Positions 2 to 40,149 of a stretch of DNA of 64,000 nucleotides are shown in pieces. Position 1 is the stretch's first letter, and each line of letters begins with the position of its first letter. Under the pieces are notes generated by a model. It searched no databases and was not told the origin of the DNA. It saw only the letters and a list, made by a program, of their open reading frames with translations. Made by a program: the position numbers and the translations under genes. The stretch is from Lactococcus allomyrinae (GTDB taxonomy: Bacteria; Bacillota; Bacilli; Lactobacillales; Streptococcaceae). The stretch is taken from assembly GCF_003627095.1 (NCBI RefSeq), contig NZ_CP032627.1:2170001-2234000 (forward strand), read 5' to 3'.

Positions 2-283
2 CAAGTTGTACTAATGATAAGGGATTGTGCGCTCTATTTTATTGATAAGACAATGAAAGAAGAAGCGAATGAGTTGCTGAAAGACTACAAAAATCTGATT
101 GCGAGTCCTATTGTAGATGTTTACAATCGAAAGGAGTACAAGTTTGTAGAAGGAAAATATCTGCTTATGGTAGGAAAAAAACAAGAAGCACAGCAAATTT
201 TTGAATTTTTAGCGCAAATGTATGAATTGCTGGACTATCCAGAAACAGCAGAAATGATCAGAAAAATCGTTACAAATAAGTAA
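2..283 (+). CDS. Rgg/GadR/MutR-type transcriptional regulator, C-terminal part (5' end outside window)
   Basis: The reading frame is open from the first bases of the window, so this is the last 93 residues of a longer protein and not a small gene starting at the internal ATG at 14. The helical, TPR-like C-terminus (a KYLLMVGKKQEA stretch and a final AEMIRKIV helix) resembles the peptide-binding end of Rgg regulators, which sense short imported peptides such as SHPs. It lies 97 nt upstream of a tiny peptide gene and a radical SAM gene. That is the arrangement known from streptococcal Rgg-controlled RiPP clusters. The DNA-binding domain and any SHP gene are not visible. The family call rests on the helical tail and on context. 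Confidence 0.6.
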   Translation, partial: QVVLMIRDCALYFIDKTMKEEANELLKDYKNLIASPIVDVYNRKEYKFVEGKYLLMVGKKQEAQQIFEFLAQMYELLDYPETAEMIRKIVTNK

Positions 284-286
284 TGA

Positions 287-312
287 TTTTTTAATGTTAA
301 TTTTTATATGAT
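287..312 (+). promoter_or_regulatory. Probable promoter of the RiPP precursor operon
   Basis: A TATGAT -10-like hexamer lies at 307-312, about 70 nt before the precursor start codon. The -35 region is only a T-rich, AT-rich stretch (287-292). A weak -35 is what one expects of an Rgg-activated promoter, but no Rgg box was verified. Confidence 0.35.
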
Positions 313-380
313 ACACTGTGCTTGTGGCGAAGAACGAAGCAACTTGTCACAAATCATAAAAAAATTAGGAGGTGACCAAG

Positions 381-452
381 ATGAAAGTCACAATCAAAAA
401 GAATAAAAAGGCACAAGAAACTCGCCAACATGTGATCAATGTTTGCAGTTGA
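381..452 (+). CDS. Candidate RiPP precursor peptide, 23 residues
   Basis: A 23-codon gene with a strong ribosome site (AGGAGGTG, 367-374) starting at ATG 381. The first 17 residues are basic and polar (many Lys and Gln, no acidic stretch). The C-terminus is QHVINVCS, with one Cys at position 22 and an Asn two residues before it. It precedes a radical SAM/SPASM gene and follows an Rgg-type regulator. That is how precursors of streptococcal radical-SAM RiPPs (streptide and its relatives) are arranged. The Asn-x-Cys end recalls the NxxC subfamily, in which a Cys sulphur is joined to an Asn beta-carbon, but the spacing here is one residue shorter. The modification is inferred, not seen. Confidence 0.65.
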   Translation: MKVTIKKNKKAQETRQHVINVCS

Positions 453-460
453 GAGACTTT

Positions 461-493
461 GAAGCTGCCATAATGAGCAGCTTCTTCTTTTTT
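461..493 (+). terminator. Attenuator-type hairpin between precursor and radical SAM gene
   Basis: GAAGCTGC (461-468) pairs perfectly with GCAGCTTC (477-484) across an 8-nt loop and is followed by a T-rich run to 493. Lying 8 nt after the precursor stop and before the enzyme gene, it probably lets precursor mRNA outnumber enzyme mRNA. Confidence 0.75.
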
Positions 494-513
494 ATTTGGG
501 AAAGGAATCTCCT

Positions 514-1776
514 ATGGCATTATTTACTAATTATGTAGAACAAGTAGAAAGCTCAGACAGCACGATTTTGTACAATTTTTATAACGGTATCTCCATAAAA
601 TATCCTCACATATTATTTAAAAATATAGAAGAATTTTCCAGTAATAGTGATATTTATGATCTTTTAAATTCTGAGCAATTTTTGTCAAATAATTTTCACT
701 TTAAAATCATCGATAGGACACTCCAACTCATTCTTCTTATTCACGAAGATTGTAATTTTCGGTGCACCTATTGCTACGAGAAATTTGAAAAAGGTGCGAT
801 GAGTAAAGAAATTGCAGAGAGTGTCCTAAGGTTTATAAAAAAAGAAATAACGGAAAATAGGGAAAAATACGATAAGATACAACTTTCATGGTTTGGTGGA
901 GAACCATTGCTAAATCTAAAAATCATTGAGTTTTTAAGTGATGAAGTTTTGAAACTAGCAAGACAAAATGACTTGGAATATTATTCAGATATTACTACAA
1001 ATGGTTACTTGCTCAGTCCAAGAATTTTTCAAAAACTTTTGAATTTAAAAGTGAATAATTTTCAGATCACGATTGACGGGACGCAAGTCTATCACGACAA
1101 ACAACGACTTTTAAAAAATGGACATGGAACATATGCTAGAATCATCCAAAATTTGTTGAGCATCAAGAAAAATATAACTGATGATACGGTTATTATCCTT
1201 AGGACAAACGTAGGAAAAGAGAATTATGAAACGATGGATGAAAATATATCAAATCTCATTTCCCTATTTGGAGATACAGAAAATATTTTACTTTTTTTCC
1301 ACAATATTGGTAACTGGGGAGAAAAGGAGATAGAAGTCGTAAAAAAAGACATCCGTCTTGAATTAACAAAACGGGTTATTGAACGTGGCGGTCATGTTGT
1401 ACCGTTTATTTGGACGATGGGACCAGATAATATATGTTATGCAGCAAAAGAAAATCACTATGTCATAGGATCCATGGGTTTGGTGTATAAGTGCACAGTC
1501 GCTCTTTATGATCAAAGAAATATTTTGGGGAGATTGGACAAACAAGGAAATTTGCTAATAGACAGAAAAAAAGAAAAAATGTGGACAGAAGTAGAGCTAG
1601 ATGAAGAATGTTATTCCTGTACACTCTTACCAAGTTGCCTGAACAATAGATGTCCTCTGAATAGAATGACTTCCAAGCAAACTCACTATTGTCTTCCCAC
1701 AAAAGGGCAAATCGAAGAAATGATACTAGTATTGGACAAGCAAAATCTGATTACGTATGAAATTGGAGCGAATTGA
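514..1776 (+). CDS. Radical SAM/SPASM peptide-modifying enzyme
   Basis: A radical S-adenosylmethionine enzyme, 420 residues from ATG 514. I chose this start over the upstream TTG at 496 because AAAGGA at 501-506 is 7 nt before it. The canonical cluster motif CNFRCTYC (CxxxCxxC) sits near residue 82 and holds the SAM-binding 4Fe-4S centre. The C-terminal quarter has a SPASM-type set of cysteines (CYSCTLLPSC, then NRC and a final HYC) for auxiliary clusters. An RRE-like N-terminal region of about 75 residues precedes the radical SAM core. With the 23-residue peptide in front, it most likely installs a cross-link on the peptide, perhaps a Cys thioether. The MFS gene starts at the base directly after its stop codon. 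Confidence 0.85.
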   Translation: MALFTNYVEQVESSDSTILYNFYNGISIKYPHILFKNIEEFSSNSDIYDLLNSEQFLSNNFHFKIIDRTLQLILLIHEDCNFRCTYCYEKFEKGAMSKEIAESVLRFIKKEITENREKYDKIQLSWFGGEPLLNLKIIEFLSDEVLKLARQNDLEYYSDITTNGYLLSPRIFQKLLNLKVNNFQITIDGTQVYHDKQRLLKNGHGTYARIIQNLLSIKKNITDDTVIILRTNVGKENYETMDENISNLISLFGDTENILLFFHNIGNWGEKEIEVVKKDIRLELTKRVIERGGHVVPFIWTMGPDNICYAAKENHYVIGSMGLVYKCTVALYDQRNILGRLDKQGNLLIDRKKEKMWTEVELDEECYSCTLLPSCLNNRCPLNRMTSKQTHYCLPTKGQIEEMILVLDKQNLITYEIGAN

Positions 1777-3009
1777 ATGAACCTTATCAAAAGAAACTCC
1801 ACTTTTCGGTCTCTTTTTCTTTGTAATGTCTTTAACACGATGGGAAGCAATCTCTTCTCATTAGCCTTTATTATCTATGCTTCGACTTATCCCAATAGTA
1901 AGATGTATATCTCTCTAGCAGCACTACTCATGGTTTTTCCGACATTTTTAAATGCTTATATGGGCTATCTGGCGGATCACACCATAAACAAGAAACGAGC
2001 CCTATTTATAACCTCGTGGATTCAATCAGGCTTATTTATAACTGTAGCACTTGTGATTGCGCAGCGCACCCTTATTATTTTTCTATTTTGTATTTTAATG
2101 AATTTAGTAGATGAGCTCTTTGCAATGTATAAAGACGGTTTAGAGCTACCAATCATGCAGGAGCGTGTATCATCAAACGATATACAATCCGCTTATGGCT
2201 TGATGCAAGGGATAAGCTCCTTAATTGGAATTGTGGGTAAGCCTGTTGGACTCATGCTCTTAGCATTATTAGGTCACTCGTTTTCCATTCTTGCCTTAGT
2301 CAATGCAGGCTTATACCTGATATCAGGTTTTGTATTACTAGGAAGCCGAAACTCCCTAGATGTCACTGTAAACTTAGACCAAGAAAAATTTCATTTCTCA
2401 ATCAAAACGACTTTATCACAAATCGGAGAAGTATTCAAAAGGGATCAGGCAGCATCGGCAACGAATCTTATCATTATGGTACTTATTATCAATTTTTCGA
2501 TTAATGGTATTTTACCACTCATTGACCTCGCTATGGTTCATCACAATCCGTTTGACAGCAGTTTTGGATTCGCTGTCACGGTGTTTAGTATTACATTCTC
2601 TTTAGGAATTTTTATCTCCTCAATTTTTATGAATGACTTGTTTCATAAAGGAAGTTTGACAGCGATATTAAGGACAATTTTGGTTTTGCTCATTTTGTTC
2701 TCCTTGCTTATTATTCCTTTCGGATTAGCTGCAGTTGCCGTTCTCTTTATCATAGGATATGCTTTTGCAAAGGTAAATCCTAAATTGACAAGTATCATTA
2801 TTCAAATGATTCCAAAAGAAGATTTAGCGACTGTTAGAGGAGGAATTTCAACATTTTTTGCAACAGCAAGCTCTTTAGGTGTACTAGTGTATGTTGCGTT
2901 AGCAAATATCATTGGTGTCAATTTCACCTTTTCTCTTATTGCATTGTCATGTTTAATCACTATCCTTTATCCTATCTTTATCAAGCCAAACAAAGAACCT
3001 CTCCAGTAG
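1777..3009 (+). CDS. MFS transporter, probable exporter of the modified peptide
   Basis: A 410-residue membrane protein with about 12 hydrophobic helices and the MFS loop between helices 2 and 3 (GYLADHTINKKRAL, a form of GxLaDrxgrkxxl). Its ATG directly follows the TGA of the radical SAM gene, so the two are co-transcribed and probably translationally coupled. It is the only transporter in the cluster, and by context it likely exports the mature peptide or gives self-immunity. MFS export is less common than ABC export in RiPP clusters. The substrate is inferred from position alone. Confidence 0.75.
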   Translation: MNLIKRNSTFRSLFLCNVFNTMGSNLFSLAFIIYASTYPNSKMYISLAALLMVFPTFLNAYMGYLADHTINKKRALFITSWIQSGLFITVALVIAQRTLIIFLFCILMNLVDELFAMYKDGLELPIMQERVSSNDIQSAYGLMQGISSLIGIVGKPVGLMLLALLGHSFSILALVNAGLYLISGFVLLGSRNSLDVTVNLDQEKFHFSIKTTLSQIGEVFKRDQAASATNLIIMVLIINFSINGILPLIDLAMVHHNPFDSSFGFAVTVFSITFSLGIFISSIFMNDLFHKGSLTAILRTILVLLILFSLLIIPFGLAAVAVLFIIGYAFAKVNPKLTSIIIQMIPKEDLATVRGGISTFFATASSLGVLVYVALANIIGVNFTFSLIALSCLITILYPIFIKPNKEPLQ

Positions 3010-3032: not shown

Positions 3033-4451
3033 TTAAACGTGAATAGGCAATCCATCAGCCAATTCAGCAGTATCCATAATCGCTTCACCAAGCGTTGGGT
3101 GAGGTTGGATAGTGAGTGAGATGTCTTTAGAAGTCAATCCATTCTCAATAGCGAGAGAAAGACCAGAAATCAAGTCAGAAGCACCAGGACCAACAATTTG
3201 AGCACCAATAATGGCTCCTTCTTTAGTTTCAGTAATCAAACGTAAGAAACCTGTGGTGTCATTCATAGAAATCGCACGACCATTTGCGGCAAATGGGAAT
3301 TTTGAAATCTTGACATCTTTACGCTCTTTAACAGAATCAGGTGTTTCACCAACTGTAGCAAGCTCAGTTGTAGTATAAGCTACGGCTGGCAAAGCGACGT
3401 GCAAATCCACATCATCTTCGGCTCCTGCGATTGCAGCAGCAGCAACTTTAGCTTGGAATGAAGCTTTATGTGCAAGCATAGGTCCAGGAACTACATCACC
3501 AATAGCATAGATATGAGGAACGTTTGTAGCGTAAGAGTCGTCAACTTCAATTAAACCGCGGTCAGTCAATTTAACATCAGTATTATTCAAGCCAATCAAG
3601 TCTGTGTTTGGACGACGACCAACAGAAACCAACAAGTAGTCGCCAGTCACTGTTTGTTCTTTACCATCCACTTCAAAAGTCAAAGTCACATCTTTGTCTG
3701 TTTGGACAGCGGATTTTGCCATTGCAGAGGTAAAGATTTCAGAACCAGCAGACTTCACGCGATTTGCGATGATATCAGACATCTCTTTATCAAAACCATT
3801 TAAGATATGGTCAAGTCCTTCAACAATCGTGATTTTAGAGCCGAGCATACGGTAAGCACCGCCAAGCTCAGAGCCAATAACACCACCACCAACAATAATC
3901 AGGTGTTTAGGCACTTCAGGAAGTGAGAGCGCACCAGTAGAGTCAATAATACGACCACCAAATGGGAAAGGAGGAATTTCAATAGGACGTGAACCTGTAG
4001 CGATAATCACATCGTTAAACTGTAAGAGTTGGAAACCATCTTCTTGTTCAACATTAATTGTATTATTGTCTACAAATTCGGCAGTTCCTTTGATAACGTC
4101 AATTTTGTGTTTTTTCAACAACATTTTAACGCCACCAGTTAATTGATTAACAACTTTTTCGTCTTTCCATTTTTGCGCAGCAGACCAGTCAAGTTCAACA
4201 TTTTTAACTGAAAGTCCAAAAGGATTTTCACCTTTTTGTTCTTCCAAAGATTCTTGATAGTGGTGACCCACGTTAATCAAGGCTTTTGATGGGATACATC
4301 CAATATTCAAACAAACCCCACCAACATTATCTTTCTCAATAACTGTAACTTTTTTGCCTAATTCAGCAGCACGAATGGCAGCAACATAACCGCCAGGGCC
4401 TGAACCAATAACAACCAAATCAACTTCTGTTGCTTGTGCACCAACAACCAT
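3033..4451 (-). CDS. pdhD: Dihydrolipoamide dehydrogenase (E3) of pyruvate dehydrogenase
   Basis: E3 reoxidises dihydrolipoamide on the E2 lipoyl arms and passes the electrons through FAD to NAD+. The 472-residue protein is full length. It has an N-terminal FAD dinucleotide fold (IGSGPGGYVAAIRAAELG), the redox-active disulfide motif GGVCLNIGCIPSK, a second NAD-binding fold (IVGGGVIGSELG) and the C-terminal HPTLGEA His-Glu pair. It is the last gene of lplL-pdhA-pdhB-pdhC-pdhD. It is separated from pdhC by an unusually long structured spacer, which could give it separate mRNA stability or its own promoter. Confidence 0.97.
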   Translation of the reverse strand: MVVGAQATEVDLVVIGSGPGGYVAAIRAAELGKKVTVIEKDNVGGVCLNIGCIPSKALINVGHHYQESLEEQKGENPFGLSVKNVELDWSAAQKWKDEKVVNQLTGGVKMLLKKHKIDVIKGTAEFVDNNTINVEQEDGFQLLQFNDVIIATGSRPIEIPPFPFGGRIIDSTGALSLPEVPKHLIIVGGGVIGSELGGAYRMLGSKITIVEGLDHILNGFDKEMSDIIANRVKSAGSEIFTSAMAKSAVQTDKDVTLTFEVDGKEQTVTGDYLLVSVGRRPNTDLIGLNNTDVKLTDRGLIEVDDSYATNVPHIYAIGDVVPGPMLAHKASFQAKVAAAAIAGAEDDVDLHVALPAVAYTTTELATVGETPDSVKERKDVKISKFPFAANGRAISMNDTTGFLRLITETKEGAIIGAQIVGPGASDLISGLSLAIENGLTSKDISLTIQPHPTLGEAIMDTAELADGLPIHV

Positions 4452-4780
4452 TTTTTATTCCTCTTTCATTACTTTTAAATTGAAAAATCAAATGGTAACG
4501 AATCCTCGGCGAACGATCTCAAAAGGGGCTAACATCCGTTTAGTCTCCTACGGAGCCGTCACGGCTGAACGCCACGGTAAATCAAGGAATTCGCCTGTGC
4601 GGAATATATGCCGATAAATCGGCTATATTCTCGTCACTATTTAATTTTCCAGAGGGAGCTACGCTCCTATAATTCAGACACGTATGCAACGCCAAATGTC
4701 GCCTATGATTTTCCGCAGAGCGGCACATTTACGCAACTTTTCCAGTAGTGTGAATACTGAGCAAAAGTTGCAAACGAAAA
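4452..4780. repeat. Highly structured 329-nt spacer inside the pdh operon
   Basis: No gene is seen here. The stretch is full of local inverted repeats. They include AGCCGTCACGGCT near 4553, a long hairpin at 4602-4630 whose GAATATA and TATATTC ends enclose a paired core around a TAAA loop, and GGAGCTACGCTCC near 4654. A nested hairpin has outer arms GCAACTTTT (4733-4741) and AAAAGTTGC (4763-4771) and inner arms CAGTA and TACTG. Its base use is less AT-rich than other spacers. The style (long stem with a small perfect apical hairpin) matches the other repeat families in this window, but I cannot align it to them. Confidence 0.6.
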
Positions 4781-6364
4781 TCAAATTTCCATCAACATGA
4801 ACTCAGGATCAGCCAAAAGTGATTTCAAGTAGTTCAATGAAGTTTGACCCAACATACCGTCAATCAAACGGTGGTCATAGGTCATTGACAGCTTCATGTT
4901 TTGACCGACAACGATTTCACCTTCGCCGTTTACGATAGGTTCTTTGACAATAGAGCCAAGTCCCAAAATCACAACGTCAGAACCGTTGATAATTGGTGTG
5001 AACCAACTTCCACGCGCAGAACCGATGTTAGAAATCGTAATCGTAGAGCCTTGCATTTGTGCAGGTTTCAATGAACCATCACGAGTTGCTGTTGCCAATT
5101 CTGCAATTTCTTTGGCGATTTCAAGGATTGATTTATTTTCAGCTTCATGGATGACTGGTACGTATAAACCAGTAGGTGCATTGACTGCAATACCGACATT
5201 GACGTGCTCATGGTAAACAATTTCTTGTTTTTCGTAGTCCACAGAAGCATTGATGTCTGGGAATTTATGAGCTGTTGTAGCCAAAGCTTTAGCCACATAA
5301 GCAAGATACGTCAACTTGATGTCTTGTTTAGCCGCAATATCTTTGAAGCCAGCACGATGTTTCACTAGTTTTGAAACTTCAACTTGGTCAAAGTTTGTAA
5401 CAGGTGGAATATGAGTGTGTTGTGCAGTCATGACTTTAGAGACAACTTTACGTGTTGGGTTCATCGCTACACGTTCGTCTGTTGCACCCGCTTTGACGCT
5501 AGGCGCTTTAGGTGCGTCTGCTGCTTTAGGTGCGCTAGGCGCAGCAGGTGCTTCTGGAGTGCTAGGCGCTACAAGAGGAGCAACTTTACCAGATTCAAAA
5601 GCTTTGACATCAGCAAGTGTTGTATGACCGTGACGACCAGTAGCGGGTACAAGTGTTAAATCAATACCAGCTTTACGCGCATAATGACGTACAGATGGCA
5701 TAGCGAGGACACGACCAGCAGAAGTTGTTTTAGTTAAAGGTGCATTGCCAGCGGGCGCAGCAACTGCAGGAGTAACTTCAACAGCAACAGGAGCAGGGGT
5801 TGCTGTCGCTGGAGCGGCAGAAGAGCCATTTCCGTTGTATTCGATTAAAGGAGCACCAACTTCAACAGTCGTCCCTGCCTCAACAAAAAGTTTAGTGACA
5901 GTACCAGAGTAAGGTGACAAAATTTCTTGCATGAGTTTATCATTTTGTACTTCAGCAACTGGGTCATCTTCTTTGATTACATCTCCAACTTTAACCAGCC
6001 AGTTAGCGATGTCACCTTCGTGCATTCCTTCACCAATGTCAGGCATAGTGAAGATTTGAACATCACCAGTAGGAGCTTCAGCTACTACAGCTGGCGCAGG
6101 AGTAGTTTCTGTTGCTCCACCAGTTCCATCACCGTCAAATTCAACTAAAGGGGCATCAACTTCAACGGTTGTCCCTGCTTCAACAAAAAGTTTAGTGACA
6201 GTGCCAGAGTAAGGCGACAAGATTTCTTGCATGAGTTTGTCGTTTTGTACTTCAGCGATTGGATCATCTTCTTTGACCACATCTCCGACTTTAACCAGCC
6301 AGTTAGCGATGTCGCCTTCGTGCATTCCTTCACCAATATCAGGCATTTTAAAAATCTCAGTCAT
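4781..6364 (-). CDS. pdhC: Dihydrolipoamide acetyltransferase (E2) with two lipoyl domains
   Basis: E2 forms the core of the complex and transfers the acetyl group from its lipoyl arm to CoA. The 527-residue protein has two near-identical N-terminal lipoyl domains (each with the lipoylated Lys in NDKLMQE), joined by Ala/Pro-rich linkers. A peripheral-subunit-binding domain follows (PSVRHYARKAGIDL), then the catalytic acyltransferase domain ending in DHRLIDG, the HxxxD-type active site. The start is ATG 6364, behind GAGGTGG and overlapping the pdhB stop by 8 nt. The two lipoyl domains are also nearly identical as DNA, which points to recent duplication or gene conversion. Confidence 0.97.
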   Translation of the reverse strand: MTEIFKMPDIGEGMHEGDIANWLVKVGDVVKEDDPIAEVQNDKLMQEILSPYSGTVTKLFVEAGTTVEVDAPLVEFDGDGTGGATETTPAPAVVAEAPTGDVQIFTMPDIGEGMHEGDIANWLVKVGDVIKEDDPVAEVQNDKLMQEILSPYSGTVTKLFVEAGTTVEVGAPLIEYNGNGSSAAPATATPAPVAVEVTPAVAAPAGNAPLTKTTSAGRVLAMPSVRHYARKAGIDLTLVPATGRHGHTTLADVKAFESGKVAPLVAPSTPEAPAAPSAPKAADAPKAPSVKAGATDERVAMNPTRKVVSKVMTAQHTHIPPVTNFDQVEVSKLVKHRAGFKDIAAKQDIKLTYLAYVAKALATTAHKFPDINASVDYEKQEIVYHEHVNVGIAVNAPTGLYVPVIHEAENKSILEIAKEIAELATATRDGSLKPAQMQGSTITISNIGSARGSWFTPIINGSDVVILGLGSIVKEPIVNGEGEIVVGQNMKLSMTYDHRLIDGMLGQTSLNYLKSLLADPEFMLMEI

Positions 6365-7337
6365 AATCAACCACCTCTTTAACTTTATTCACGATATCTT
6401 CTGCTTTAACCGCCCAATCATTTTCAGCTTGAGCAAATGGGAAGATTGAGTCTGGACCAGTGACACGACCAATAGGCGCTTTGAGGCTCAAAACAAAACG
6501 TTCTGAAATTTCAGCCATAACATTTGCCGCAATACCAGCAGTACGTTGGGCTTCCTGAACGACTACGACACGACCAGTCTTTTCAACAGTTTTACCGATA
6601 GAAGCGATGTCGAGAGGAGCAACAGTGCGCAGGTCAAGGACTTCTGCCTTGATTCCTTCTTTTTCAAGTTGTTCAGCAGCTTTGAGTGCAAGCGGTACTG
6701 TACCACCATAGGCGATGATAGAAACATCAGAACCTTCTTTAGCTACAGCAGCTTGGTCAAGTGGTGTTGTATAATAGCCCTCTGGCACTTCACCTTTGAG
6801 TGAGCGATAGAGGTGGAGATTTTCAAGGAAAATGACAGGGTCATTGTTTTCGATGGAAGCTAAAAGTAAACCTTTAGCATCAGCCGGATTTGATGGCATT
6901 ACAACACGAAGTCCAGGAATTTGCGAGAACAAACCTTCGATTGAATCAGCGTGCATCTCAGGTGTCTTAGTTCCGATACCATAGGGCGTACGAACAACGA
7001 TATTGTTTGAACGTGTGTTGTTGAAACGATAACGTGTACGACTCATTTGACCTGCGATAGAGTCAAATACTTCAAAGATAAATGTTCCGAATTGAATTTC
7101 CATGATGGGATGGAAACCTTGAGTTGCAAGACCAATCGCCATACCACCAATTCCTGATTCAGCAAGCGGAGTATTGAAGACACGGTCTTCACCATATTTC
7201 TTTTGGAGTCCATCTGTTGCACGGAATACCCCACCATTTTCTCCGACATCTTCACCAAAAACTAGAGTGTCTTTGTCTTTTTCAAGCGCAAGGTCAAGCG
7301 CTTCTGTAATTGCTGCAATATAAGTTTTCACTGCCAT
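6357..7337 (-). CDS. pdhB: Pyruvate dehydrogenase E1 component, beta subunit
   Basis: The beta half of the thiamine-diphosphate E1 heterotetramer that decarboxylates pyruvate and acetylates the lipoyl arm. At 326 residues it has the usual family length. It shows the EDVGENGGVFRATDGL segment typical of E1-beta, with the Glu that activates ThDP, and the C-terminal transketolase-like domain. Its start is 2 nt after the pdhA stop, and its end overlaps pdhC, so it is tightly coupled to both. Confidence 0.97.
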   Translation of the reverse strand: MAVKTYIAAITEALDLALEKDKDTLVFGEDVGENGGVFRATDGLQKKYGEDRVFNTPLAESGIGGMAIGLATQGFHPIMEIQFGTFIFEVFDSIAGQMSRTRYRFNNTRSNNIVVRTPYGIGTKTPEMHADSIEGLFSQIPGLRVVMPSNPADAKGLLLASIENNDPVIFLENLHLYRSLKGEVPEGYYTTPLDQAAVAKEGSDVSIIAYGGTVPLALKAAEQLEKEGIKAEVLDLRTVAPLDIASIGKTVEKTGRVVVVQEAQRTAGIAANVMAEISERFVLSLKAPIGRVTGPDSIFPFAQAENDWAVKAEDIVNKVKEVVDYD

Positions 7338-7339
7338 TC

Positions 7340-8464
7340 TTATTTGCCCTCGCTTTCAAATTTTTCAATTTGCTCAAGCATTGCTTGGCTAGGTACTTCA
7401 AGTGTGTTTTTGATGAAGCTAGAGATTTTTTGTTTTTCAACATTATTTGCTTTTTTGATGTCAGCATCAATGCGAGCATCAAGTTCAGCAATATAAGCTT
7501 CTTCTTTTGCAGTATCCCAAAGTCCTTTGTCTGTCAAGAATTTACGCATACGAACAAGAGGTTCTTTCTTCCACCAAGCATCAATATCTTCTTTTGTACG
7601 ATAGCGAAGCGGATCATCACCAGCTGTTGAGTGTGGTTCAAGACGATTTGTGATTGTTTCAATAACTACGGGACCATTACCAGCGACGGCCCAAGCGCGT
7701 GCTTCTTTTGAAGCGAGGTACATTGCGATAGCATCCATACCATCAACAACAATAGATGGCGCACCAGCAGCCCATCCTTTTGCAGCTAAATGTGGTGCAG
7801 CAGTTTGAAGACTTCGAGGAGTTGAAATCGCAAAACCGTTATTTTGAATGAAGGCAACAAGTGGGGCTTTGTAAGCTCCGGCAAAGTTGATTCCTTCATA
7901 AGTATCGCCTTGTGAAGAACCACCATCACCTGTATAAACAAAAGCTACGGCATCTTTTTTACGTTTTTTGAGTCCAAGAGCAACACCGGCAGCTTGAACG
8001 TATTGAGCGCCGATGATGATTTGTGGGAACCATGAATTGACTGGTTTTCCATCATCAGTAGTGTATTCATTACCAAGCTGGTGTCCACGAGACCAAAGAA
8101 GCCCTTTCCAGATTGGCCAACCTTTTGAATAAATCTGTGGAAGGTCGCGATAGCCTGGGAAAAGCCAGTCTTCATCTGTAAATGCAAAGGCTGAGGCCAT
8201 TTGAGAAGCTTCTTGACCTGCATGGGGACCAAAGAACCCCATACGTCCTTGTTTTGCGAGTTTCATTGAACGAATGTCTACTTGACGCGCAAAAAGCATA
8301 CTCTTGAAGAGTTCGACAAGTTTTTCATCAGATAGTTCTGCACGTTTAAGTCCATCTTCATCAACGATTTTTCCTTCTTCGTTGAGGATTTGCAACATTG
8401 GGAATGCAGTATCTTGCAATTCGAGTTGCGTTTTGAAATCTAAGATTTGTTTACTGTTTGACAT
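7340..8464 (-). CDS. pdhA: Pyruvate dehydrogenase E1 component, alpha subunit
   Basis: E1 alpha, 374 residues, carries the thiamine-diphosphate binding motif that begins GDGGSSQGD and ends with the following NN (about residues 175-205), and RYRTKEDID near the C-terminus. It is the first pdh gene of the complex, 82 nt downstream of lplL. An AGGAAA ribosome site precedes ATG 8464. No clear promoter is seen between lplL and pdhA, so transcription may begin upstream of lplL. Confidence 0.97.
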   Translation of the reverse strand: MSNSKQILDFKTQLELQDTAFPMLQILNEEGKIVDEDGLKRAELSDEKLVELFKSMLFARQVDIRSMKLAKQGRMGFFGPHAGQEASQMASAFAFTDEDWLFPGYRDLPQIYSKGWPIWKGLLWSRGHQLGNEYTTDDGKPVNSWFPQIIIGAQYVQAAGVALGLKKRKKDAVAFVYTGDGGSSQGDTYEGINFAGAYKAPLVAFIQNNGFAISTPRSLQTAAPHLAAKGWAAGAPSIVVDGMDAIAMYLASKEARAWAVAGNGPVVIETITNRLEPHSTAGDDPLRYRTKEDIDAWWKKEPLVRMRKFLTDKGLWDTAKEEAYIAELDARIDADIKKANNVEKQKISSFIKNTLEVPSQAMLEQIEKFESEGK

Positions 8465-34063: not shown

Positions 34064-34888
34064 TTATTTTTGTTTTCCCGTTCGATTCAATATTAATGTA
34101 AGCACTCTGATAAAGAGTTTGGGATGAGCGCGTGCAATATGAACAATGGCACGGTCACCCATAGAATGGAAATATCGACGTTTGGGCTTTTCATCTGTCG
34201 CTGCTTTATAAAAGAGTTCGGCAAGTTGTAGAGAAGTTGCGCCAGCACCCAGACTTTCGCCAGATAAAGCACCACGAATACTAACTACGAGAGGTTGATA
34301 AGGACTATTTTGCTTTAGATTTTTTTCTGCATTTTCCATAGCAATCGCACCCCAACTTGAAGCTGTGCCACCAGGTTGAATAACGATTGAACGTATACCA
34401 AAAGCTTTGACTTCAGTATCAAGTGTATCAGACCATTGTTGCATTGCAGCCTTTGTCGCATGGTAAAAGCTCCCTAATGGCATATAAAGATCGCCACCAA
34501 TGCTTGAAATATTGATAATTCGTCCAGATTTTTGTGTGCGCATTGTAGGTAGAACAAGTTGAGAAAGCTCTACTGCACCAAAGAAGTTAGTTTCAAACTG
34601 TTTACGGACATTTTCCATTGAGATTTCTTCTGCTGGACCATATTCACCATAGCCGGCGTTGTTGATGAGGACGTCGATGCGGTCTGCTTGGTTCAGGATT
34701 TCGGTGACAAATGCTTGGTTACTTTTGGAGTCTGTTACGTCAAGTTTGAGTGCAGTGATATTTTTGTCTGTTGGGATTTTTTTGACACGGCGAGCGCCCG
34801 CAAAGACCTGCCAACCTTTATTGGCAAAGAGTTTTGCGGCTTCGTAGCCCATGCCGTTTGATGCGCCTGTAATGATGACTGTTTTCAT
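34064..34888 (-). CDS. Short-chain dehydrogenase/reductase (SDR), paralogue 1
   Basis: 274 residues from ATG 34888. Cofactor motif VIITGASNGMGYEA at the N-terminus (TGxxxGxG), NNAGYGEYG, then the catalytic Ser in NISSIGG and YHATK (Tyr and Lys). The basic residues after the second strand (GARRV) favour NADP. It sits next to a tetR gene with palindromic sites between them, so it is likely repressed by TetR. A close paralogue lies at 36040-36870. Confidence 0.9.
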   Translation of the reverse strand: MKTVIITGASNGMGYEAAKLFANKGWQVFAGARRVKKIPTDKNITALKLDVTDSKSNQAFVTEILNQADRIDVLINNAGYGEYGPAEEISMENVRKQFETNFFGAVELSQLVLPTMRTQKSGRIINISSIGGDLYMPLGSFYHATKAAMQQWSDTLDTEVKAFGIRSIVIQPGGTASSWGAIAMENAEKNLKQNSPYQPLVVSIRGALSGESLGAGATSLQLAELFYKAATDEKPKRRYFHSMGDRAIVHIARAHPKLFIRVLTLILNRTGKQK

Positions 34889-34942
34889 GATAAATGTCTC
34901 TTCCTTTTTAAATAAATGATTGTTCATTCACTTAAACATTAT

Positions 34943-36039: not shown

Positions 36040-36870
36040 TTACTTTTTTTCAAAGTAACGCATAGCAAGGAGAAGAGCTTTGCGGAAAACTTTGGGATGG
36101 TTTCTTGCAACATACACCATAAATTTATCACTAAAAGAGTGCAAATAGCGTAGACTAGGCTTGATATCTGTTGCTGCTTTATAGAAAAGTTCCGCTAAAT
36201 CGGTAGTTTTTGCGCTATTTTTCATAAATCGTTCTAGACCCATAGCAACTGAACTTACAAGGGGTTGATAGGCAGAGTTCTCACTCATGTTCGCCTTAGA
36301 ATTATCAAGAGCGATAGAACCCCAACTAGACTGTGTACCTCCAGGCTGGATACAGATGGAACGAATACCGAAAGGAGCGACTTCAAGATCAAGAACATCG
36401 GACCATTGTTGAATAGCTGCTTTTGTCGCGTGGTAATAGGCACCAAGCGGCATATAGACATCACCGCCAATACTTGAGATATTAACGATACGACCATAAT
36501 TTTGAGCGCGCATAATTGGTAGGACAAGTTGAGTGAGTTCAACTGCACCGAAAAAGTTAGTTTCAAATTGTTTTCTTATCTTGTCCATTGGAATTTCTTC
36601 TGCTGGCCCATATTCACCATAGCCAGCGTTGTTGATGAGGACGTCAATGTGTCCTGCATCATTAAAAATCTGTTCAATGAAAGCATGGTTTGAAGTGGAG
36701 TCAGTCACATCAAGTTTGATGGCAACAATATTTTCACCATCTTGGGGAATTTTTTCGACACGACGTGCACCTGCGTAAACTTTCCAACCTTTTTTGGCGA
36801 ACAGTTTTGTCGCTTCATAGCCCATGCCGTTTGATGCTCCTGTGATTGCTACTGTTTTTTGATCGGTCAT
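36040..36870 (-). CDS. Short-chain dehydrogenase/reductase (SDR), paralogue 2
   Basis: 276 residues, clearly homologous to the SDR at 34064 over its whole length (shared TGASNGMGYEA, GARRVEKIP, NNAGYGEYGPAEEI, ISSIGGD, the YHATKAA motif and QPGGT). The catalytic Ser, Tyr and Lys are present. The two paralogues flank tetR and the DUF1801 gene, which suggests a local duplication. The substrate is unknown. Confidence 0.9.
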   Translation of the reverse strand: MTDQKTVAITGASNGMGYEATKLFAKKGWKVYAGARRVEKIPQDGENIVAIKLDVTDSTSNHAFIEQIFNDAGHIDVLINNAGYGEYGPAEEIPMDKIRKQFETNFFGAVELTQLVLPIMRAQNYGRIVNISSIGGDVYMPLGAYYHATKAAIQQWSDVLDLEVAPFGIRSICIQPGGTQSSWGSIALDNSKANMSENSAYQPLVSSVAMGLERFMKNSAKTTDLAELFYKAATDIKPSLRYLHSFSDKFMVYVARNHPKVFRKALLLAMRYFEKK

Positions 36871-38843: not shown

Positions 38844-40043
38844 TCAAAAATTAGCGAAATCGGAGAAAAGTTTCATTTCATTTTCTGCCTTGGTTGGTTC
38901 TAAGTGACTATATGTGTCCATTGTCATTTTTAATGTTGCGTGTCCTAGTCTCTCTTGAATGACTTTGTAAGACATACCAGCATTGAGGCAAAGTGAAGCG
39001 TGTGAGTGTCGAAAACCGTGAAAACCAATATCTGGAACATTTGCACCCTTAAAAATAGTTTTCAGTGTCCTTTTAAAACTATTATAGTCAGCAACTCCCC
39101 CGGTCTTTTTTGGAAAGATAAGTTTTTGATTGGGTAGACCTAATGCCATAAAATATTTTTGTTGAAAAAGCCACCAAGATTTAAGTATCTTTTGAGCGTG
39201 AGGGTCAATATGTACAACTCTCACGCTTTTACTTGTTTTTGGAGAGTCTTGTATCTGCTGTTTAAGAGTGACATTCTTATTTACAGTAATCGTACCATTA
39301 TTAAAGTCTAAGTCTTCCCAGTTTAAGGCGAAAGCTTCACCAATACGCAAACCAGAAGCGACAAGGAGACGGCATAAAGCAGTCATGAATTCATTTGTCC
39401 ATAACCCTTTAGGAAGTCCTTCTAGATGTTTAAAAAATTGGTTGAGTTCATCCTTGGTTAAATGTTTTTGTTGCCTTGCAGTTGATTGTACTTTAACTTT
39501 GGGGATAAGAATGTTTTGACAAGGGTTAGAACTGACGATACCTAAAGACAGGCCGTACTTAAAAATACGGTTTGTAATGCTGAAATAGAGCCGATAATCA
39601 CGGCCTTTTCCTTTTGCTCTTCTAGATTTATTACCAATTGGTAAACTAGCAGTTTCAGCCCATTGATTGACTTGCTTTTGAATGATATGTGGAGTGATTT
39701 TGTCTAACCTATATTCTCCAAAAGATGGTAATATATAGTAAGTGAGATAGCTGTGTATGTTCCCTAAACTACGCGGCTTTTTATCTTTTTTATAGAAATC
39801 AAACCAGAGTTCAGCAAGGTCTTTAAAAGTCTTGAGCTGCTTTTCCTTTTTGACACATCCATTTTTAATAAAATCATTTTGAAGCCGTGAGAGTTTAGTC
39901 TTAACGGCTTTTTTTGTGTTCCCACGCACATCAGTACGTACTTGCTTACCTGTGAGCTTGTCAATGCCAATATAAGCACCACGGAGGATGTAACGTATCT
40001 CTCCGCCTTTAGTTTTGTATTCTTTGATATTTAGTTTGTTCAT
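38844..40043 (-). CDS. int: Site-specific tyrosine recombinase (integrase)
   Basis: 399 residues from ATG 40043 (MNKLNIKEYKTKGGEIRYIL). N-terminal AP2-like and SAM-like core-binding domains are followed by the catalytic domain with Arg in ASGLRIGEAFALNW, HGFRHSHASL (His-x-x-Arg) and the nucleophile Tyr in LGHATLKMTMDTYSHLEP. It is full length and looks functional. It lies at the left end of the island, transcribed towards attL, the normal place for the integrase of these elements. Confidence 0.95.
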   Translation of the reverse strand: MNKLNIKEYKTKGGEIRYILRGAYIGIDKLTGKQVRTDVRGNTKKAVKTKLSRLQNDFIKNGCVKKEKQLKTFKDLAELWFDFYKKDKKPRSLGNIHSYLTYYILPSFGEYRLDKITPHIIQKQVNQWAETASLPIGNKSRRAKGKGRDYRLYFSITNRIFKYGLSLGIVSSNPCQNILIPKVKVQSTARQQKHLTKDELNQFFKHLEGLPKGLWTNEFMTALCRLLVASGLRIGEAFALNWEDLDFNNGTITVNKNVTLKQQIQDSPKTSKSVRVVHIDPHAQKILKSWWLFQQKYFMALGLPNQKLIFPKKTGGVADYNSFKRTLKTIFKGANVPDIGFHGFRHSHASLCLNAGMSYKVIQERLGHATLKMTMDTYSHLEPTKAENEMKLFSDFANF

Positions 40044-40060
40044 GTTGGTTTGTCTTTCTA

Positions 40061-40080
40061 GCACCGCCCAGTACGCAAAA
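40061..40080. repeat. 20-bp repeat GCACCGCCCAGTACGCAAAA, copy 1
   Basis: An exact 20-bp match to 41155-41174. A shorter inverted relative (GCACCGCC followed by GTACGTAAAA) lies at 50487-50504. Copy 1 is 18 bp upstream of the integrase start codon. Confidence 0.85.
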
Positions 40081-40149
40081 GTCAAAACATGAATATGGTA
40101 GCCCATAAAACCTTTTATATAAAGTTTATAGTTACTTTAAAATTATATT

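What the first reader, a model, noticed from the sequence alone, without database searches (positions are those of the whole stretch)
2..3009. Rgg-linked radical SAM RiPP cluster with a 23-residue Asn-x-Cys precursor
The order is Rgg-type regulator end, 23-residue basic peptide ending QHVINVCS, attenuator, radical SAM/SPASM enzyme and MFS exporter. Streptococcal quorum-controlled RaS-RiPPs have this plan. The single Cys with a nearby Asn suggests a thioether, but the N-x-C spacing differs from the described NxxC subfamily by one residue. A Lactococcus member with a new cross-link topology is possible.
Basis: partly seen in the sequence, partly recalled or inferred. Interest (0 to 1): 0.85.

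Follow-up and report, generated by a model that had tools for sequence, protein, structure and literature searches.

The report
Lactococcus single-ring Asn-x-Cys peptide cluster
A Lactococcus chromosome carries a small gene cluster that probably makes a short secreted peptide closed into one tiny sulfur ring by a radical enzyme; it is a new branch of a known peptide family, and a ring of that spacing is already known from one relative.

Summary
In detail: end of an Rgg gene, a 23-residue peptide gene ending HVINVCS, a hairpin, a radical SAM/SPASM enzyme and an MFS transporter. A second Lactococcus genome (G024) has the same order with a precursor ending HVINIC; leader and core are conserved, the middle hardly, so the Asn-x-Cys motif is real. 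'New cross-link topology' is not supported: relatives of this enzyme lie beside short peptides with Asn-x-Cys or Asn-x-x-Cys, the spacing changed several times on the enzyme tree, and the QMP (suisactin) relative, reported to form nine-membered sactionine rings around one intervening residue, has Asn-x-Cys twice. Best reading: a new, early-branching, single-motif RaS-RiPP subfamily with one thioether from Cys22 to Asn20, alpha (QmpB-like) more likely than beta (NxxC-like), then MFS export. Chemistry and function are inferred. The recO-pdhD site is a turnover site for Rgg-linked clusters; relative G016 has lost precursor and enzyme there but keeps Rgg and a 70%-identical MFS, suggesting export or self-protection. 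No short-hydrophobic-peptide gene was found nearby. The only intact enzyme of this branch that I saw is the window's.

The parts
2..283 (+). C-terminal part of an Rgg-family regulator; the full gene (about 298 aa) begins upstream of the window, right after recO
367..373 (+). ribosome-binding site AGGAGGT of the precursor gene
   Evidence: read
381..452 (+). precursor peptide gene, MKVTIKKNKKAQETRQHVINVCS (23 aa)
   Evidence: homologue in G024
381..404 (+). leader motif MKVTIKKN, identical in G024; most relatives share M-x-[VI]-x(2-4)-N
   Evidence: (24 of 27 distinct precursors)
429..446 (+). conserved core HVINVC; Asn20 codon 438-440, Cys22 codon 444-446 (predicted thioether partners)
   Evidence: the cross-link itself is inferred
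461..494 (+). terminator-like hairpin and T-run between precursor and enzyme, probable attenuator; a hairpin with a T-run lies at the same place in G024
514..1776 (+). radical SAM/SPASM peptide maturase (420 aa); CX3CX2C at 751-774; later cysteines C308, C327, C366, C369, C375, C380, C393
1777..3009 (+). MFS transporter (410 aa), probable exporter and/or self-protection

Best explanation
A chromosomal RaS-RiPP cluster of a new, early-branching subfamily. Rgg controls a 23-residue precursor; a hairpin after the precursor lets more precursor than enzyme be made; the radical SAM/SPASM enzyme recognises the leader MKVTIKKN, takes hydrogen from Asn20 and joins it to the sulfur of Cys22, giving one small ring (nine-membered if at the alpha carbon as reported for QmpB, ten-membered if at the beta carbon as for NxxcB); the leader is trimmed by a protease not in the cluster and the short cyclic peptide leaves through the MFS protein, which may also protect the producer. 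Shown: gene order, conservation of leader and core in two genomes, enzyme family and its tree, the hairpin in two genomes, loss of producer genes with the MFS kept in a relative. Inferred: every chemical step, trimming, export and regulation.
For: Orthologous Rgg-precursor-rSAM-MFS cluster in G024: residues 1-8 identical, 1 of 8 identical in residues 9-16, core HVIN[VI]C kept. Of the 36 enzyme matches, 27 loci carry on the enzyme's strand a short precursor with NxC or NxxC, 5 a Cys precursor without that Asn, 4 none found. ORFs chosen by the leader pattern alone in those 36 loci: 26 distinct on the enzyme strand, 20 with NxC/NxxC, and 0 on the other strand. In 12 of 13 distinct peptides with two such motifs (some near-copies) both have the same spacing. 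7 Paenibacillus loci examined (of 9 fetched) each have a short ORF ending NCNxC before the enzyme. The only solved-structure match at E up to 1e-5 is 5wgg, by recall the SCIFF thioether enzyme CteB.
Against: No product, no mass and no structure: all structure jobs met a full queue. Five of 36 loci (four of D-H-Y-C type, and L061) have precursors without the Asn, so the family does not need Asn. Enzymes nearest to the window's are interrupted (G024, G457; also G506, which is not on the tree), so activity may have been lost repeatedly. No leader protease is in the cluster and no SHP gene was found nearby. That QmpB and NxxcB belong to this enzyme family rests on precursor motifs, not on their sequences, which I did not have.
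Confidence: 0.72

Rival explanations
1. The cross-link is a beta-thioether (NxxC-type chemistry) on N-x-C spacing, giving a ten-membered ring: QMP spacing with NxxC regiochemistry, which I did not meet in the passages I saw.
For: NxxcA joins Cys23 to Asn20 at the beta carbon (review passages), and precursors with exactly N20/C23 (L013, L052) belong to enzymes of this family. The window enzyme branches outside both the NxxC-like and the QMP-like groups, so position on the tree favours neither chemistry.
Against: The only reported product with one intervening residue that I met, suisactin, is alpha-linked.
Confidence: 0.25
2. The 23-mer is (also) the signal for the adjacent Rgg: a ComS- or SHP-like pheromone encoded next to its receptor, modified by the enzyme, exported by the MFS and read by Rgg.
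For: It starts 97 bases behind rgg and no SHP-like ORF was found in the scanned stretch around it.
Against: It is basic rather than hydrophobic; in G013, G020 and G016 the precursors lie behind the transporter, three copies in G013; Rgg-MFS pairs with no such peptide seen exist in G016, G023 and G027.
Confidence: 0.12
3. The cluster is decaying or silent and the ring is no longer made.
For: G024, G457 and G506 enzymes are interrupted; in G016 precursor and nearly all of the enzyme are gone.
Against: In the window every gene is open (the Rgg as read from the genome), the ribosome-binding site is strong and the conserved cysteines are present.
Confidence: 0.15

Closest known systems
QMP subfamily (suisactin, QmpB), Streptococcus suis
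   Same: Enzyme relative beside a precursor with Asn-x-Cys twice (TNFC, VNLC); reported rings span one intervening residue.
   Different: Two rings and a C-terminal QMP; precursor lies after the enzyme; 33% enzyme identity (L028) and another branch. Here one motif, precursor first, MFS partner.
NxxC subfamily (NxxcB, S. orisratti)
   Same: Single Cys to Asn thioether reported, Asn20 as acceptor; precursor before the enzyme in the L013-type relatives.
   Different: Two intervening residues (Cys23) against one here; the enzymes beside N20/C23 precursors group apart from the window's.
TIGR04463 radical SAM/SPASM RiPP maturase
   Same: Best NCBIfam match of the window enzyme (1.6e-50).
   Different: 172 bits against a cut-off of 525, so not a member by that rule.
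Rgg-rSAM-ABC clusters of other Lactococcus-group genomes (G013, G020, G016)
   Same: Rgg 28-45% and enzyme 33-37% identical; G013 at the same recO-pdhD site; N-x-C or N-x-x-C precursors.
   Different: ABC exporter (best match GggC but below its cut-off) and precursors behind it.
RaS-RiPP regions predicted by antiSMASH in Lactococcus lactis UTNCys6-1 and ATCC11474 (PMC10094308)
   Same: Already in print as radical SAM RiPP regions of the same genus (passages).
   Different: No precursor or motif was given in the passages I saw; whether any of them is this cluster was not tested.

Membership tests
RaS-RiPP (Rgg-linked, streptococcal type) | radical SAM/SPASM enzyme beside a short precursor with a conserved core motif | tested here: met
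RaS-RiPP (Rgg-linked, streptococcal type) | Rgg gene adjacent | tested here: met
   (TIGR01716, above cut-off)
RaS-RiPP (Rgg-linked, streptococcal type) | SHP pheromone gene near rgg | tested here: inconclusive
   none found at the window's cluster by a simple hydrophobicity and ribosome-site scan; unusual SHPs could be missed
NxxC subfamily | Asn-x-x-Cys in the core | tested here: not met
   N20-V21-C22
NxxC subfamily | enzyme groups with those beside N20/C23 precursors | tested here: not met
   separate branch, 98/95 support for the window's group; true NxxcB sequence not available
QMP subfamily | Asn-x-Cys with one intervening residue | tested here: met
QMP subfamily | two such motifs and C-terminal QMP | tested here: not met
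   one motif, ends in S
TIGR04463 | score above the curated cut-off | tested here: not met
   172.2 against 525 bits
sactipeptide or ranthipeptide | thioether to the alpha, or to a non-alpha, carbon | not testable with these tools
   needs mass spectrometry and NMR

The most novel reading that the evidence does not exclude
The cyclised C-terminal peptide is itself the signal read by the neighbouring Rgg: a radical-SAM-modified pheromone, made, exported and sensed by one four-gene unit, with no separate SHP.
Probability: 0.1. Interest if true: 0.8.

Novelty: new variant of a known kind. Interest (0 to 1): 0.47.

Why it matters
It adds an early branch outside Streptococcus to the radical SAM peptide clusters best studied there (RaS-RiPP regions in Lactococcus had been predicted before), and it suggests that one core, Asn separated from Cys by one or two residues, underlies several streptococcal subfamilies named after other letters. 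Because spacing differs between near relatives (TNNCNIC and TNFCVNLC beside TNYGCNSPC), the family is a natural set for asking what sets ring size and alpha versus beta attachment; the window's member, with a single minimal motif, is a simple substrate. Rgg-MFS pairs left without producer genes make the role of the MFS testable.

Tried and rejected
Three weak precursor hits in other genomes of the family (G135, G136, G322) were rejected: they lie in unrelated loci. The first precursor scan mis-read the loci whose match is on the minus strand, because loci of the genome search are not turned; corrected. The window's Rgg was translated in a wrong frame (comparison void, the SHP scan there is unaffected) and (its Rgg rows ignored); corrected. 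A residue-shuffle test of the motif (23 of 27 observed, mean 10.8 in 5000 shuffles, never reached) is circular, because most peptides had been picked by that motif; I rely on the leader-only selection, whose pattern was itself drawn from these peptides but found nothing on the other strand, and on the strand control (33 of 115 small ORFs on the enzyme strand, 5 of 68 on the other; near-copies and a few unrelated ORFs included). Plasmid and phage records gave only relatives under 60% identity, viral contigs none; the cluster's DNA had no plasmid match. Genome contigs gave nine Paenibacillus loci and one partial Chloroflexi match. L017 (G032) was left out of the second tree as a long branch. In L051 an out-of-frame remnant of an L022-type precursor is visible; it was counted as none found. 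Chance as an explanation of the precursor, and a plain unmodified SHP, were rejected.

Literature: of PMC13361665, PMC8326336, PMC12395415, PMC10094308, PMC10134562 and PMC8092268 I saw passages only; the primary QmpB, NxxcB and 2018 survey papers were not read (titles from a reference list; QmpB look-up failed; the others were not looked up). That I met no Lactococcus N-x-C cluster in print rests on searches, limited to the held library and mostly to their listings. On re-checking I lowered interest from 0.50 to 0.47 because of the Lactococcus predictions.

Full report
What is there. The window opens in the last third of an Rgg gene (2-283). A 23-codon gene with a strong ribosome-binding site follows at 381-452, then a hairpin with a T-run (461-494), a radical SAM/SPASM gene (514-1776) and, starting directly after its stop codon, an MFS gene (1777-3009); pdhD lies beyond on the other strand. 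In the genome the Rgg gene starts just after recO.

Is the precursor real. The peptide was sought in 335 genomes of the family: 5 matched at E up to 10, of which the own genome and G024 are real (the other three were inspected and rejected). G024 carries Rgg, MKVTIKKNPKSNSNHKHVINIC, a 57%-identical enzyme and an MFS protein in the same order at another chromosomal site. Residues 1-8 are identical, residues 9-16 agree at 1 of 8, and the core (HVIN, then V or I, then C) is kept; a hairpin with a T-run stands between precursor and enzyme in both. The G024 enzyme is interrupted near its SPASM part, which weakens this as evidence of present use.

The enzyme family. The enzyme matched 32 of 335 family genomes at E up to 1e-40 (33 matches) and 15 of 395 order genomes at 1e-50, three of them outside the family. 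The 36 loci were scanned for short precursors on the enzyme's strand: 27 have one with N-x-C or N-x-x-C; 5 have a Cys precursor without that Asn (four of D-H-Y-C...GNEF type, and L061); in 4 I found none. Choosing ORFs by leader pattern alone gave 26 distinct ones on the enzyme strand: 20 with the motif, 4 family members without it, 2 unrelated; none on the other strand. Seven of nine fetched Paenibacillus loci were examined, and each has a short ORF ending in NCN-x-C before the enzyme.

What the spacing means. In 12 of 13 distinct peptides with two motifs, some of them near-copies, both share one spacing (the exception is L060). On the enzyme tree the labels N-x-C, N-x-x-C and no-Asn need at least 6 changes, and well-supported branches alone force 4 for each of the first two; this is fewer than in shuffles (mean 10.7), so spacing is partly inherited yet changes between near relatives: TNNCNIC and TNFCVNLCQMP sit beside TNYGCNSPC. 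So spacing is not a boundary between enzyme families. The QMP-ending precursor identifies its locus with the QMP subfamily by motif; its product is reported to have two sactionine rings with one intervening residue (review passages), and a synthesis paper tried the first ring as Dhb-Phe-Cys toward a nine-membered ring (passages), matching the Phe-Cys of TNFC; that the acceptor there is this Asn is my inference. The precursors of L013 and L052 have Asn20 and Cys23, the positions reported for NxxcA (review passages). I did not have the sequences of QmpB or NxxcB, so these identifications rest on the precursors.

Where the window belongs. Its enzyme groups with G024 and a broken copy from another family of the order, G457 (precursor ending TTNNCNCKQPI), with 98/95 support, outside the NxxC-like, QMP-like and ABC-linked groups (G457 and Paenibacillus are long branches and their places are less sure; G506 was not placed). 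It is far below the cut-off of the best curated model (172 against 525 bits). Hence a new subfamily of a known kind. RaS-RiPP regions have been predicted in Lactococcus lactis before (passages); whether any is this cluster was not tested. The likely product is one ring of nine (alpha) or ten (beta) atoms at the C-terminus, by ring arithmetic.

The site and the transporter. Of 18 genus genomes, 17 gave pdhD. In 12 of these recO and pdhD are less than about 365 bases apart; in four the gap is filled: the window's cluster in G000; Rgg-rSAM-ABC with three precursors behind it in G013; Rgg-MFS-ABC in G016; Rgg-ABC in G022, whose pdhD is nearly identical to the window's; in G028 recO was not found nearby. 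In G016 the MFS is 70% identical, and the stretch before it reads NLITY, like the C-terminus of the window enzyme (QNLITYEIGAN): precursor and nearly all of the enzyme appear deleted and the MFS kept. Rgg-MFS pairs without an enzyme also occur in G023, where no such remnant was seen, and G027. This fits an exporter that also protects, but an unrelated use is not excluded.

Regulation. The Rgg proteins compared are 44-56% identical to the window's, apart from the distant one of the G016 ABC cluster (28%). A scan for short hydrophobic peptides with a ribosome site found none in the stretches scanned around the window's cluster and G013's, and one unconvincing ORF in G024's. Whether the cluster is quorum-controlled, and by what, is open.

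Verdict. Observation confirmed; RiPP reading supported; new-topology claim not supported, because a one-residue spacing is already known from a relative. Alpha or beta attachment remains open.

Noticed in passing
L111 (G000:C1:2092000-2101000), 3726-7847 -: A second Rgg-linked RiPP-like locus in the same genome: Rgg, 30-aa peptide ending TLGCPVF, a RamC-like (class III lanthipeptide) synthetase in two ORFs (one 614-aa ORF in G012, L113), and an MFS 37% identical to the window's; in G016 (L114) Rgg, a like peptide and the MFS are there but no synthetase ORF was seen.
   Followed up: partly
L086 3144-4448 - (G016): Apparent deletion scar: tail of the radical SAM enzyme before an intact MFS next to Rgg; producer genes lost, transporter kept.
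   Followed up: yes
L112 and L115 (G023, G027): Rgg directly followed by a related MFS with no enzyme or precursor seen.
   Followed up: partly
L043 2893-3197 - (G013): Three tandem precursor genes behind the ABC exporter, two ending CGAGC or CGSGC after N-x-x, one shorter.
   Followed up: partly
L030, L033, L038, L094, L061: Enzyme relatives whose precursors have D-H-Y-C or D-H-H-E-C and no Asn before the Cys: a different acceptor is likely.
   Followed up: no
L059/L096 (G506): Broken copy of a window-like enzyme (47%) followed by three near-identical 31-aa ORFs spaced 561 bases apart.
   Followed up: no
window 34064-34927 and 36040-36870 -: Two similar short-chain dehydrogenase genes near an integrase-like gene at 38844-40106 (judged by eye from translations).
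   Followed up: no
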